This document shows, piece after piece, positions 58,572 to 63,383 of a stretch of DNA of 64,000 nucleotides. A model generated the notes under the pieces. That model was given only the letters and a program-made list of their open reading frames with translations. It searched no databases and was not told the origin of the DNA. The position numbers were made by a program, and so were the translations under genes. The stretch is from Alphaproteobacteria bacterium (GTDB lineage: Bacteria; Pseudomonadota; Alphaproteobacteria; TMED109): assembly GCA_022825235.1 (NCBI GenBank), contig JAJDYI010000073.1:1-64000 (forward strand). Reading direction: 5' to 3'. Numbering within the stretch: the stretch's first letter is position 1; each line of letters begins with the position of its first letter.

Positions 58572-58851
58572 GTAGCGGCTCAACATCAGGGTTGACCAGG
58601 CTGAAGCGTGCTCCCCGTCTGCGTTGGGAAACGTCGATTGGATTCGTAGCCGCCAGGGTTGTTGGCTCGGTGAAAACGCGATGCCTTCCCGTTGATCCGG
58701 TGTATTGGTCAAGCCGCTCTGCACGACGAAGCCGCCCGATACGCCTCGGCATGGCCGTGCCGCTCAGCGCCACCGGAGAAGTAACGGCGCCGGCAAGCGG
58801 ATGAACCAGCCGGAGCGCGACTTCTCTTCCCAGATACTCCGCCCTGCAAAT

Positions 58852-58955
58852 TTGCGCTAAAGCCTCGGATGCGCGCAATATGCAAGAATGGAAGCCATTA
58901 TTGCTGCGCGGATAGTTTATTATTGCGCATAAGCCTGTTATATTGCGCGTATACT
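58852..58955 (+). promoter_or_regulatory. Repeated TATTGCGC operator-like motifs and promoter of the Fic gene
   Basis: TATTGCGC occurs directly at 58921-58928 and 58941-58948, exactly 20 bases (two helical turns) apart, and inverted (GCGCAATA) at 58873-58880; a partial TTGCGC lies at 58852-58857. A TATACT element at 58950-58955 resembles a -10 box and lies 25 bases before the GTG start. The repeats overlap the likely promoter, so they could bind a repressor, possibly the winged-helix part of the Fic protein itself. Confidence 0.55.
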
Positions 58956-58980
58956 TCGGCAGCTCATCCGGAATCGCATC

Positions 58981-60381
58981 GTGGCGCGACGCATTCGTGA
59001 AGAAGACCTTCGGGCAATCGAAGAAGTGGTGGGACAACGGCCTGACGGCATGACCACGTCAGGGATCATGGACGCACTGCAGGCAGGCCCGCCACGTCGG
59101 ACCTTGCAATACCGTTTGAAGGCACTGTTCGACGCCAAGCGCTTGATACGGGACGGGTCTGGTCGCTGGGCGCGCTACCGCTTGCCCAAAGATGTCTCAT
59201 TGTCGACTCAGACGGATGCTGGACTCCCGAGAGTCACTACGCCCCTCACGACACCGATTCCGCTGTCAAAGTCAGGTAAAGAGATTCGTGACTATGTCCG
59301 ACGGCCTGTCGTAGCCCGTGAACCCGCTGGCTACGACCGGAACTTCCTGGATCGCTATCTCTCGAACGTGACCTTCTATCTCTCTGAAATGGAGAGGGTA
59401 GGGCTAAACGAGTACGGCGAGACCGAAATCGTTCGACAACCTGCGGGTACCTATGCAAAGCGGGTGTTGAACCGGTTGCTGATCGACCTGTCGTGGAACT
59501 CGAGCCGCCTGGAGGGCAATACCTATTCCCTGCTCGACACCAAACGCCTGATCGAACTCGGTGAGGAGGCGGAAGGCAAAGACCGGCGCGAAGCGCAGAT
59601 GATTCTCAACCACAAGGAAGCCATCGAGATTCTGATCGACGGCGCAGAGGGCATTGGCTTCAACCGCCACACCATCCTCAATCTGCACGCCGCGCTGGCA
59701 GACAACCTCCTTCCCGATCCCGAGGCGCCCGGTCGGCTTCGGCGCGCCAGCGTGGGCATCGAGGGTTCGGTCTTTCATCCATTGGAAATTCCGCACCTCA
59801 TCGAGGAATGCTTCGATCGGACCTTGACCAAGGCTTCACAGATCGAGAATCCATTCGAACAGGCAATGTTCGCGCTGGTGCAACTGCCGTATCTGCAACC
59901 TTTCGACGACGTGAACAAGCGGGTCTCCAGACTTGCGGCGAACATTCCGCTCATCAGGGCAAATCTGTCGCCTCTGTCCTTCGAGGAGGTGCCACGGGAG
60001 CTCTATACGGAAGCGATTCTCGGCGTGTACGAGCTCAATCGCACGGAACTATTGCGCGATGTCTTCGTTTGGGCGTACAGGCGGTCTGCGGCGCGGTACG
60101 CCGCAGTGCGGATGTCGCTCGGCGAGCCGGATCCCTTCCGGATGATTCATCGGACGGCGATCCGCCAGCTCATAGGCGAGATCATCCGAGCGGGCTTGGA
60201 CAACACAACGGCGATCACACACATCGGCGCGTGGACTGCAAAGCACATCGAGGATGCAGACGGCGCACGGTTCCGTGAAGTTGTCGAGCGGGAACTGCTG
60301 AGCCTTCACGAAGGGAACTTCTCGCGCTACAGGGTCACGCCTTCCGAATTTGCCGCGTGGCAGTCGGTGTGGGGTGCGTAG
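58981..60381 (+). CDS. Winged-helix/Fic domain protein with Gln in place of the catalytic His
   Basis: A 466-residue protein. Residues 1-70 look like a winged helix-turn-helix (EVVGQRPDGMTTSGIMDAL; TLQYRLKALFDAKRLIRDG). A helical region and the inhibitory motif SSRLEGN (S-x-x-x-E-G type, near residue 175) follow. The Fic core motif is at 306-317: QPFDDVNKRVSR instead of HPFxxGNGRxxR. The first residue, normally the catalytic His, is Gln306 (codon CAA at 59896). Fic proteins usually transfer AMP to target proteins. A Fic subgroup with the DVNKR form is known to me, and Gln may be natural within it, but I cannot confirm this. The GTG start has a weak binding site. It is not clearly paired with an antitoxin gene; the inhibitory motif is internal. 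Confidence 0.85.
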   Translation: MARRIREEDLRAIEEVVGQRPDGMTTSGIMDALQAGPPRRTLQYRLKALFDAKRLIRDGSGRWARYRLPKDVSLSTQTDAGLPRVTTPLTTPIPLSKSGKEIRDYVRRPVVAREPAGYDRNFLDRYLSNVTFYLSEMERVGLNEYGETEIVRQPAGTYAKRVLNRLLIDLSWNSSRLEGNTYSLLDTKRLIELGEEAEGKDRREAQMILNHKEAIEILIDGAEGIGFNRHTILNLHAALADNLLPDPEAPGRLRRASVGIEGSVFHPLEIPHLIEECFDRTLTKASQIENPFEQAMFALVQLPYLQPFDDVNKRVSRLAANIPLIRANLSPLSFEEVPRELYTEAILGVYELNRTELLRDVFVWAYRRSAARYAAVRMSLGEPDPFRMIHRTAIRQLIGEIIRAGLDNTTAITHIGAWTAKHIEDADGARFREVVERELLSLHEGNFSRYRVTPSEFAAWQSVWGA

Positions 60382-60669
60382 GGGTTGTTTGGCATGACGC
60401 CTGCTTGTTCCTGAGTGGAGCCGCCGTACGAGTTCTGCGGTAATCGGCGTGGCATGCCGAGTGTTCATTGGTACGCTGGTTAGGTCGATACGCGAACAGT
60501 TGCCTCCCGGCAGTAAATCCGGCTCGCCACCCGCCCAGCCCTAAATTTAATTTGCCAACACGGATGTCGGCGCATGGTGGGCTTGGGCTTGTCCCCAACG
60601 GTGAGCGCAAATCCGCTGCAAACTAAGGATTGTCATGGGCCACCAACCTGCCTGACCCTGCAAACAACT

Positions 60670-61350
60670 TTAGCTGTGCTCATTCAATAGTTTTGCGATC
60701 AATTTTGCATGGAGGTGTTTCATTTTTACAATCTCGCTTAGAAAGAACTCAACGTTATCATCGCAATCATTCTTCCTGGATGTAACAATTTCATCGTAGT
60801 CAATTTCCAGCAACTTGCAGAACTCTCGTCCAGTCATAGCCTCACGAAGAGAAATTTTCTTCTTGAATCCTTCCCAGATTGCAGATCTTTCATCTTGGTT
60901 AAATGCACAGAAATGCGATTCGAAACGATATGGGATATGCGGCGCGTTATGTTCAATGAACGCATGCATCGCCCGCCGTTCCGCACTTGCCTTCTTCGTG
61001 TCAAATACGTGACCGTCTTTCAATTCAACAATATGGCACTTCTGTACACCTTTGCGCCTTTTGAACACCATAAAGTCTGGTTCAGACCCGGGGAACTCCA
61101 ACGTTGTTGATTTCTTGATTTGAGACTTTTGCGCCAGCAGAACGCCCTCGGGCATGATCTCGGTTTCTAGAAACGCATCTAAGTCGTCAATAACATCGAC
61201 CCGGTCAGTAATCATGCGCTGCAACTCATTGCCAGCGGCAATTACGGCAGACTGAATTTTGCTCGCTAGTGCGCCTATTTCGGCGTCACCGAAAAGCCGT
61301 TCGTACGATCCAGAAACGTTCTTGGGCCTAGCTGCCCGAATTCGAGCCAC
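60670..61350 (-). CDS. Putative type II restriction endonuclease, PD-(D/E)xK type
   Basis: A 226-residue protein whose AT-rich coding sequence differs from its surroundings. A nuclease-like core is suggested by Pro91-Asp92 in SEPDFMVFKRRK and Glu109-x-Lys111 in HIVELKDGH, the normal spacing of a PD-(D/E)xK site. The remaining sequence is Lys/Glu-rich and helical. It begins 4 bases after the methyltransferase stop, so the two are one operon with the methylase first. Recognition sequence unknown. The function rests on this context plus the motif, with no family recognised by name. Confidence 0.68.
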   Translation of the reverse strand: MARIRAARPKNVSGSYERLFGDAEIGALASKIQSAVIAAGNELQRMITDRVDVIDDLDAFLETEIMPEGVLLAQKSQIKKSTTLEFPGSEPDFMVFKRRKGVQKCHIVELKDGHVFDTKKASAERRAMHAFIEHNAPHIPYRFESHFCAFNQDERSAIWEGFKKKISLREAMTGREFCKLLEIDYDEIVTSRKNDCDDNVEFFLSEIVKMKHLHAKLIAKLLNEHS

Positions 61351-61354
61351 CCAC

Positions 61355-62113
61355 CTATCCCTCTAAGTCACAACCTAAGAATGTCCTCCTCCGATTGATT
61401 GCCGCATCCAAGACCGAGAACGACCCTGCCGCTGGATCAATCACATAATCGCCCTCGTTGCTGACTGCTGTCATAAGCTCACCTTGAAGATCAACAGGCT
61501 TCGCATGAGGGTGATCGCGCTTCTTTGTGGCGGGTTCCGATATTACGTCAGTGAGATTATGTATCTTCCAAACCCCTTTAGCCTTACGTGGTTGCTTCTG
61601 CAAAACAACGCAGTATTCGGCACGCCGCCTGGTCCGGTAGCCCATTCCTGTCGTTCCCTTGTCCCAAGTGACAAGATCAACAATGTCGAGATTGGTCCCA
61701 TCAAACCATTCTCGGACGCCTTGGCACAGATGAAATTTGTCAACCCACAAAAACAAATGGCCAGATGGAATAAGTGTGCGATCAATCCCGATCATAAATT
61801 TCTTAATTAAATCCATCGTCATCTGTTGCAGAACAAAACGGCGCTTGCCACGAGTTTGACCTTCATTCCCATAGGCGAGCTTGTCTAGAACTCCCCGATA
61901 CTGTGGGTCGAAAAACGCTACCGGGACGGAATCTCCAGGAAGCATGGAAAGAAATTTGATCCCATCCATCTTTAGACGCGTGTTTGGCAGTATTTCCTTA
62001 GGCAGGTCTAGCGGCGGAGCTTGGACAGTCCTGATCCCCGAAAAGACCGATGCTCTGAGTGGGTCCGTGGTGGCGGGAACCGGACGGTTTAGCTTCCGCG
62101 GCTTTCTCGACAT
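61355..62113 (-). CDS. DNA adenine/cytosine-N4 methyltransferase (beta-class order)
   Basis: A 252-residue enzyme. The catalytic motif IV reads DPQY (69-72) in VAFFDPQYRGVLDK, where DPPY is common. Motif X appears as HAKPVDLQ (about 203-210) and motif I as VIDPAAGSFSVLDAA (224-238), so the order IV, X, I places it in the beta class. It should protect host DNA against the nuclease encoded directly downstream. Its own GC is low. A 5'-end ATG at 62113 is plausible; no strong binding site is visible. Confidence 0.8.
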   Translation of the reverse strand: MSRKPRKLNRPVPATTDPLRASVFSGIRTVQAPPLDLPKEILPNTRLKMDGIKFLSMLPGDSVPVAFFDPQYRGVLDKLAYGNEGQTRGKRRFVLQQMTMDLIKKFMIGIDRTLIPSGHLFLWVDKFHLCQGVREWFDGTNLDIVDLVTWDKGTTGMGYRTRRRAEYCVVLQKQPRKAKGVWKIHNLTDVISEPATKKRDHPHAKPVDLQGELMTAVSNEGDYVIDPAAGSFSVLDAAINRRRTFLGCDLEG

Positions 62114-62163
62114 TGATCAGCCCCAATCGATTAGTCCAAGCGCAATGTTAGCGCGCAACGGGT

Positions 62164-63130
62164 TGAGCCTGCCCCCGACATTGGACCACCTGGAGTGAGG
62201 AAATCTCGGCTGATCCGCCTCAAGACCGACATGCCGGCCCTGAAGATTTTGCCAGCTCAATCGGAGGGTTCTGGCCAATTGAGGTGTTCGGGCGGACGGT
62301 ATTGTAATCCGTTCAACACGCTTGACATTTTGACCCGGGATTTGCCGGATACAGGCACTTGCAGACGTTCAGGCGCTCGGCCTGGGACGACCCGTTGAAC
62401 GGCTCGTTGAGGGTGTTGTCGGTAGGCTTTCCGGGCCGGCAGAAGTCGGACGTCACACCGTTGATCTAGGCCCAGAGATCGAGTGCCTTGCCGATGATTT
62501 CGGACCCGTTATCGGGACGAATCGTCTTCGGTATGCCGTGGATCCCGGTCATTCGTTCTTGCGTCTTGACCACGTCCGTGCCGCGGTAGTGCGCCCTGAC
62601 TTCGACACCGCCGGCGCGACTCGGCGCTTCGGCGTCTTGTGGCGCAGTTGCAGACCTTCTTCGGTGTAGGCCGATAGATCCGTTTGGCGTACATCTGCCA
62701 GCCGTCGCGCCGCTGCAGCGAGTGGTTCCGGCGATACCCTTAGTGCCCACGGGTCCCCACGATCTCCCGGTTGCAGCGACCGATTGGCGGCGTAGTGGTA
62801 CTGCCGGTTGGCCTCAACCACCGCGCACACAAGCCGAATGCTCACCTGCCAGACCTGCTGGGTCTCGTCGACCGGCCCCAGTCGCCGCCCCGGCGTCAGA
62901 GCTTTCCGCGCACCACTTTCTGTAGCAATCTCCTTGTCCGGGCTGAGGTTTGCCACCAGCCAGTTGAGCTGCTGGCTCTCCCCCTCGAGCTGCTTCAGGC
63001 GCTTCATCTCCGAGGGCATCAGCCCGCTGTACTTCTTCCGTTAGCTGAATTACGTCTGCACCAAGACCCCCCTTCCGGCAGTCCTCCCCGACCAGTATCC
63101 CTTCCTTTGTCTGGCGCAGATCGCTTGGTG
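62164..63130 (-). pseudogene. Decayed IS3-family element (IS407-like) with orfA/orfB remnants
   Basis: Reading on the minus strand from about 63130: a broken orfA end (RKKYSGLMPSEMKRLKQLE, then LSPDKE and KALTPGRR) merges into orfB fragments in different frames. These include IPKTIRPDNGSEIIGKALDLWA, then after an in-frame stop, FCRPGKPTDNTLNEPFNG, and finally VRPNTSIGQNPPIELAKSSG at the orfB C-terminus ending at 62220. Each matches the conserved DDE transposase pattern but several frameshifts and stops interrupt it. The + strand at 62164 reads TGAGCCTGCCCCC, close to the TGACCTGCCCC type ends of IS407-group elements. The other end is not clear. No active transposase remains. Confidence 0.75.
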
Positions 63131-63307
63131 ATCATCTGCGATCCTGACGATAATTTTTCGATATCGATACGAAATATCCGAAGAGTTTCGGTAGATGGAC
63201 GATCGCCCTACGCTCTGTCTGTCGGCCCAAGTGCGACAACAACAGCGATCTGTGACTGACAATTTCTGTGGTCGTTTACAGAGCTGCCGGAACAGCCTGC
63301 TCTGAGT

Positions 63308-63383
63308 TGGTGACCCCTAGGGGAATCGAACCCCTGTTTCCGCCGTGAGAGGGCGGCGTCCTGGACCGCTAGACGAAGGGGCC
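63308..63383 (-). tRNA. tRNA-Glu (anticodon CTC)
   Basis: The cloverleaf folds well on the minus strand. The 7-base acceptor stem has one G-U pair, the anticodon stem CCGCC/GGCGG encloses the loop CTCTCAC with anticodon CTC, and the T arm is GGGG-TTCGATT-CCCC. Discriminator A is followed by an encoded CCA (63308-63310). The 3' end faces the island, the usual target side for integrases. Confidence 0.95.

What the first reader, a model, noticed from the sequence alone, without database searches (positions are those of the whole stretch)
58981..60381. Winged-helix/Fic protein whose expected catalytic His is Gln306
The core reads QPFDDVNKRVSR where HPFxxGNGRxxR is expected, and the change is one base in the codon (CAA). 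The internal inhibitory motif SSRLEGN is intact, as in class II Fic proteins. The protein might be inactive for AMP transfer, use another chemistry, or serve mainly as a DNA-binding regulator through its N-terminal winged helix. A natural subgroup with Gln cannot be excluded.
Basis: partly seen in the sequence, partly recalled or inferred. Interest (0 to 1): 0.6.

Follow-up and report, generated by a model that had tools for sequence, protein, structure and literature searches.

The report
Self-repressing Fic protein, glutamine active site
This bacterial gene belongs to a widespread, natural branch of the Fic enzyme family whose usual catalytic histidine is always a glutamine; it carries its own DNA-reading head that very probably binds a row of short repeats over its own promoter to switch itself off, while what the altered active site does is still unknown.

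Summary
The 466-aa protein at 58981-60381 has Gln306 (CAA, 59896-59898) where Fic enzymes have His; the class II inhibitory motif SSRLEGN is intact. It is not a recent mutation: Gln is invariant in 101/101 homologues, by CAA or CAG, and only distant relatives (about 31% identity or less) have His. A 94%-identical orthologue sits at the same site in a sister species (dN/dS about 0.3). This Gln branch was described in silico in 2015 ('clade D2', PMC4454073); I found no experiment on it in the papers searched.

What I add: the branch has an unannotated N-terminal winged helix, and most members have 3-6 short repeats, 19-21 bp apart, over their own promoter. Repeat sequence switches with recognition-helix residue 44 (Tyr/His with TTGCGC, Arg with TGGCGC/TGTCGC), including in two members nested inside the other clade. 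Own-promoter autorepression is therefore very likely. No other promoter nearby carries the array and no partner gene travels with it, so 'mainly a regulator' is unlikely to be the whole story. The nucleotide-pocket residues are invariant, so the Gln-Fic domain probably still binds a nucleotide and does something other than ordinary AMP transfer (inferred).

The parts
58981..60381 (+). Fic-family gene, 466 aa, GTG start: winged helix + Gln-type Fic domain + C-terminal helical part
   Evidence: intact orthologue at the same site in a sister species, dN/dS 0.28-0.36
58981..59190 (+). N-terminal winged helix-turn-helix, residues 1-70
   Evidence: AlphaFold models; Z about 10 to winged-helix proteins; Pfam HTH_20 weakly in 42 of 85 members
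59095..59133 (+). Recognition helix, residues 39-51 (contains RRTLQYRLK); Tyr44 and Lys47 covary with the promoter repeat type
59500..59520 (+). Class II inhibitory helix motif SSRLEGN, residues 174-180; Glu178 invariant
59896..59931 (+). Fic core QPFDDVNKRVSR, residues 306-317; Gln306 codon CAA at 59896-59898
   Evidence: Gln 101/101, Lys313 101/101, Asp310 99/101
58923..58931 (+). Promoter repeat TTGCGCATA (exact)
   Evidence: same position in the sister species
58943..58951 (+). Promoter repeat TTGCGCGTA (exact), 20 bp after the previous one
58904..58912 (+). Degenerate third repeat CTGCGCGGA, 19 bp before the first exact one; TTGCGTGTA in the sister species
   Evidence: alignment
58852..58878 (.). 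Two outlying weak repeats: TTGCGCTAA (+, from 58852) and TTGCGCGCA (-, 58870-58878)
58916..58943 (+). Weak promoter-like pair TTTATT / TTATAT (16 bp apart) interleaved with the repeats, where relatives have TTGATA-17-TTTAAT
   Evidence: inferred by comparison with the family consensus

Best explanation
A stand-alone, mobile, self-repressing class II-type Fic protein of a natural Gln branch. (1) Strongly supported, not bench-tested: the N-terminal winged helix reads 9-bp half-sites (TTGCG[CT][ACG]TA here) laid 19-21 bp apart over its own promoter, so the protein turns its own gene down; recognition-helix residue 44 reads the second base of the half-site (Tyr/His with T, Arg with G). (2) Shown by conservation and predicted fold: the Fic domain keeps the fold, the inhibitory Glu178 and the residues that in FICD bind Mg and phosphate (Asp310, Asn312, Arg314, Arg317), but has Gln for the catalytic His and Lys for the second Gly. 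(3) Inferred: because no other promoter carries the array and no partner gene travels with it, the output must come from the Fic domain, which probably binds a nucleotide and, once the inhibitory helix moves, acts on an unknown target by a chemistry other than His-based AMP transfer.
For: Gln: invariant in A1 and in 101/101 non-redundant homologues; CAA and CAG both used, His only in distant GNGR relatives; a motif-independent profile search finds only Gln among strong hits. Repeats: mean maximum 6-mer copy number 4.43 in 101 upstream regions against 2.27 in shuffles and 2.37 in 980 control upstream regions; 5 or more copies in 46/101 against 4/980. They interleave with a consensus TTGATA-17-TTTAAT promoter. 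Repeat type has its highest mutual information in the whole protein with residue 44, second with residue 47, both in the recognition helix. On a tree built without the N-terminus, repeat class switches at least 3-4 times and residue 44 follows. L069 and L079 have the TTGCG clade's residue at 26/33 and 23/33 diagnostic columns but have TGGCG repeats and Arg44. Own promoter only. Purifying selection. Fold: Z 25.6 to FICD.
Against: No binding or activity experiment. Residue-repeat co-variation is partly shared ancestry: only 3-4 independent switches for residue 44, so the formal sign test is underpowered. The window's own array is weaker than most (two exact sites plus degenerate ones). Absence of other operators in the genome was tested only as spaced pairs of exact TTGCGY. 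His-to-Ala in FICD abolishes both AMPylation and deAMPylation (PMC8373988), so the domain could be catalytically dead and kept as a scaffold or sensor.
Confidence: 0.7

Rival explanations
1. Pseudoenzyme regulator: the Gln-Fic domain is catalytically dead and serves as a nucleotide sensor that controls the winged helix; the protein is essentially a transcription factor.
For: Winged helix with a conserved operator array; catalytic His absent in all members; nucleotide-pocket residues invariant, which a sensor would also require.
Against: The array occurs only at its own promoter within 873 kb of flanks (three apparent chance clusters) and within its own genome; no neighbour family recurs in more than 2 of 111 neighbours. 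A repressor of itself alone has no obvious benefit.
Confidence: 0.2
2. Canonical AMP transferase despite Gln: Gln orients the nucleophile well enough and the protein AMPylates a bacterial target when the inhibitory helix is displaced.
For: Fold, Glu178, Asp310, Asn312, Arg314 and Arg317 all kept. Khater and Mohanty cite residual activity of His mutants in IbpA and in an unrelated enzyme (PMC4454073).
Against: In FICD the His is needed for both directions of the reaction (PMC8373988); CccR H192A is inactive (PMC9755527). The second Gly is Lys in every member, as in NKR motifs of the Doc clade (PMC4454073).
Confidence: 0.09
3. Recent loss-of-function point mutation in an otherwise His-type Fic gene.
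Against: Gln in 101/101 homologues down to about 40% identity, both Gln codons in use, orthologue with Gln in a sister species, dN/dS about 0.3.
Confidence: 0.01

Closest known systems
Fic clade D2 of Khater and Mohanty 2015 (PMC4454073)
   Same: Consensus Qx[FY]x[DE][GV]NKR; QPFDDVNKR fits exactly
   Different: They call clade D2 proteins usually single-domain; this group has an N-terminal winged helix, a C-terminal part and a promoter repeat array, none of which they report in the section read
CccR (Yersinia), CbFic2 (Coxiella), SoFic (Shewanella): class II Fic with winged helix
   Same: Class II inhibitory motif plus a winged helix; CccR binds its own promoter and represses itself (PMC9755527)
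   Different: They have the catalytic His and GNGR, and their winged helix is C-terminal (PMC10628234); here it is N-terminal and the core has Gln and NKR
FICD/HYPE
   Same: Closest solved Fic domain by sequence and fold; same inhibitory Glu arrangement
   Different: His363 and GNGR; TPR domain instead of winged helix; eukaryotic
Doc (Phd-Doc) toxin
   Same: Lys instead of Gly in the core, NKR (PMC4454073)
   Different: Doc has His and a separate antitoxin/repressor gene; here repressor, inhibitor and Fic domain are one chain
PADLOC PDC-S04 candidate defence Fic models
   Same: HMM matches in 94/94 members
   Different: Match covers the Fic domain only; no defence test, and neighbours are not consistently defence genes

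Membership tests
Fic/Fido superfamily (PF02661) | Fic domain by profile and fold | tested here: met
   40.5 bits vs cut-off 24; Z 25.6, rmsd 2.6, 235 residues aligned to FICD
Canonical Fic AMP transferase | HPFx[DE]GN[GK]R core with catalytic His | tested here: not met
   Gln306 in 101/101 members
Canonical Fic AMP transferase | AMP transfer to protein | not testable with these tools
   needs an assay
Class II Fic | (S/T)xxxE(G/N) motif N-terminal to the core in the same chain | tested here: met
   SSRLEGN 174-180; Glu178 101/101
Clade D2 (Khater and Mohanty 2015) | Qx[FY]x[DE][GV]NKR motif | tested here: met
   QPFDDVNKR; paper text read
Clade D2 (Khater and Mohanty 2015) | placement in their Doc clade on a full Fic/Doc tree | not tested
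   I built a tree of this group only
Clade D2 (Khater and Mohanty 2015) | usually single-domain (a stated tendency, not a defining feature) | tested here: not met
   winged helix plus Fic plus C-terminal part
Autoregulating winged-helix repressor | winged-helix fold | tested here: met
Autoregulating winged-helix repressor | repeated sites over its own promoter | tested here: met
   array statistics and promoter consensus
Autoregulating winged-helix repressor | sequence-specific DNA binding and repression | not testable with these tools
   inferred from residue 44/47 co-variation
SoFic/CccR/CbFic2 architecture | C-terminal winged helix after a His-type Fic domain | tested here: not met
   the winged helix found is residues 1-70 and the core has Gln; the C-terminal part was not folded or searched on its own
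FicTA-type two-gene toxin-antitoxin | conserved adjacent partner gene | tested here: not met
   neighbour orientation near random, no recurrent family in 111 neighbours of 130-700 aa; very small partners could have been missed
PDC-S04 candidate defence | protection from phage | not testable with these tools
   HMM match only

The most novel reading that the evidence does not exclude
A single-chain toxin-antitoxin-like module in which repressor, built-in inhibitor and effector are one polypeptide, whose effector is a Fic domain using Gln (and Lys) for a not yet described nucleotide chemistry, and whose operator specificity evolves by swapping one recognition-helix residue.
Probability: 0.3. Interest if true: 0.8.

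Novelty: new variant of a known kind. Interest (0 to 1): 0.55.

Why it matters
The Gln branch of Fic proteins has been noted since 2015, and I found no experiment on it in the papers searched. The operator arrays give a concrete handle: they suggest that the proteins are under self-control, predict the exact DNA they bind, and supply natural specificity variants (residue 44) for direct tests. If the Gln domain is active, it would add a new catalytic arrangement to a family so far defined by its His.

Tried and rejected
Point mutation: rejected. Partner gene or operon: none recurrent. Other operators in flanks or own genome: none convincing; 11 spaced pairs in the genome against 13 in the reversed control, only the fic promoter having TTGCGC[AG]TA in both copies. 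TTGCGCRTA with one mismatch alone is not enriched in the window (14 against 19 expected), so the evidence is the clustering and conservation, not single sites. NCBIfam: no family. TGGCG versus TGTCG repeat type: no single residue explains it; residue 38 combined with Met41 fits most, but that rule was made after looking at the data. Literature searches for QPF-type motifs or Fic operators found nothing beyond PMC4454073, PMC9755527 and PMC10628234.

Full report
OBSERVATION. The gene at 58981-60381 encodes 466 residues from a GTG start that matches the start of homologues. Residue 306 is Gln (CAA, 59896-59898) in QPFDDVNKRVSR, and SSRLEGN is at 174-180. Pfam Fic scores above its cut-off; alignment with FICD equates Gln306 with His363 and Glu178 with Glu234.

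IS GLN A MUTATION? No. In a first alignment of 21 sequences (relatives at 35-68% identity) Gln306 is invariant together with Phe308, Asp310, Asn312, Lys313, Arg314 and Arg317 and with the inhibitory Ser174, Ser175, Glu178, Gly179 and Asn180. Scans of genome and viral contigs and a motif-independent profile search of 398 genomes enlarged the set: of 143 sequences, 127 had a readable core beginning with Gln and 6 with His; those with His are only about 28-31% identical and have GNGR. The rest were fragments or slightly deviant cores; the full-length ones also have Gln. In 101 non-redundant full-length members Gln306, Glu178 and Lys313 are 101/101 and Asp310 is 99/101. Both CAA and CAG occur. One of its two patterns contained the Gln, so the count from that scan alone is biased; the other pattern and one search are not.

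THE COPY ITSELF IS KEPT. A genome of the same genus (G745) has a full orthologue at the same place after amiC, 94% identical, with the same CAA codon; dN/dS is 0.28 (NG86) to 0.36 (YN00). Another (G286) keeps only the 3' end at that site, and G364 has none there. The six other Fic genes of the window's own genome all have His and GNGR, so within this genome Gln is particular to this gene.

KNOWN BRANCH. Khater and Mohanty (PMC4454073) described 45 sequences, clade D2, with consensus Qx[FY]x[DE][GV]NKR, and argued that they may not be catalytically dead. The motif here fits exactly. They call these proteins usually single-domain. I did not repeat their full Fic/Doc tree.

THE N-TERMINAL DOMAIN. 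AlphaFold on 94 homologues gives mean pLDDT 90.7. Residues 1-70 form a winged helix (39-51 as recognition helix), also when folded alone (pLDDT 78); the best solved matches are winged-helix domains, among them TtgV and ArsR, and Pfam HTH_20 is seen weakly in 42 of 85 members. The Fic domain (about 135-381) matches FICD with Z 25.6.

THE PROMOTER ARRAYS. Reading the upstream regions showed rows of a short repeat. Within 150 nt upstream, the most repeated 6-mer occurs 4.43 times on average in 101 members, against 2.27 in dinucleotide shuffles and 2.37 upstream of 980 other ORFs in the same loci; five or more copies in 46/101 against 4/980. Three main kinds exist: TTGCG (50 members), TGGCG (20), TGTCG (17); 14 were unassigned. 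Same-direction neighbours are mostly 19-21 bp apart. In the TTGCG group with 21-bp spacing the consensus is TTGAtaaTTGCGCaTA.atGtGtTtTAaTTGCGCaTAgA, a sigma-70-like promoter interleaved with the repeats. The window gene has two exact sites (58923, 58943) and a degenerate one (58904) that is better preserved in the sister species. Of more distant Gln members with a winged helix, L119, L121, L122, L133, L134, L145, L027 and L160 carry arrays of other sequences; L120 shows none, and L013, L014, L030 and L159 are borderline; the six His-type GNGR relatives show neither winged helix nor array.

WHO READS THE ARRAY. Over all protein columns, repeat kind has the highest mutual information with residue 44 (Tyr or His with TTGCG in 48 of 50; Arg with TGGCG/TGTCG in 36 of 37) and the second highest with residue 47; both lie in the recognition helix. 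Shared ancestry could inflate this. On a tree built from residues 105 onward the class switches about four times (three on well-supported branches) and residue 44 changes with it in nearly all random pairings, though so few pairs cannot reach significance. The clearest case: L069 and L079 lie in the TTGCG clade and carry that clade's residue at 26 and 23 of 33 diagnostic columns, but have TGGCG repeats and Arg44; only columns 44 and 389 have switched in both. L046, with Asp44, has TCGCGC repeats. An Arg for a G at base two is chemically reasonable (my inference).

IS IT A GENERAL REGULATOR? Within 873 kb of locus DNA only three further clusters were found, apparently by chance. In the window's genome, of 11 spaced TTGCGY pairs (13 in the control) only the fic promoter has the full half-site twice. 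Neighbouring genes have near-random orientation (53:41 and 50:48) and no family recurs in more than 2 of 111 neighbours. A protein that represses only itself must have another output, so I place the function in the Fic domain.

THE ACTIVE SITE. FICD needs its His as base for AMPylation and as likely acid for deAMPylation (PMC8373988), and CccR H192A is inactive (PMC9755527). Ordinary AMP transfer is therefore unlikely; yet the Mg and phosphate residues and the inhibitory Glu are invariant or nearly so, which argues against simple decay. Nucleotide binding with another transfer or hydrolysis, or a sensor role, are the open readings. This step is inference.

VERDICT. Observation confirmed; a natural, already described but functionally open branch; a new variant of a known kind through its N-terminal winged helix and co-evolving operator arrays.

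Noticed in passing
60670-62113 (-): A probable type II restriction endonuclease (PADLOC REase_II, 1.2e-43) and its N6/N4 DNA methyltransferase (1.2e-75) lie next to each other; absent from the same site in the sister species, where fic is followed directly by tRNA-Glu, so probably inserted after the fic gene.
   Followed up: partly
58641-63308: The stretch between amiC and tRNA-Glu is variable in the genus: fic only in G745, a 3' remnant in G286, no fic in G364.
   Followed up: partly
62466-63019 (-): ORFs resembling transposase remnants near the tRNA-Glu gene at 63308-63383; read by eye only.
   Followed up: no
L016-L022, L111-L118: Several members lie on contigs classed as viral in IMG/VR, and others on plasmids, suggesting mobility.
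   Followed up: no
L071:2800-2925: The upstream region of this member is a long tandem array of CTTCGCGAATAG units, with Lys44 in the recognition helix.
   Followed up: no
L013:1495-2571: A distant Gln member with one internal TGA; frameshift, error or recoding not resolved.
   Followed up: no
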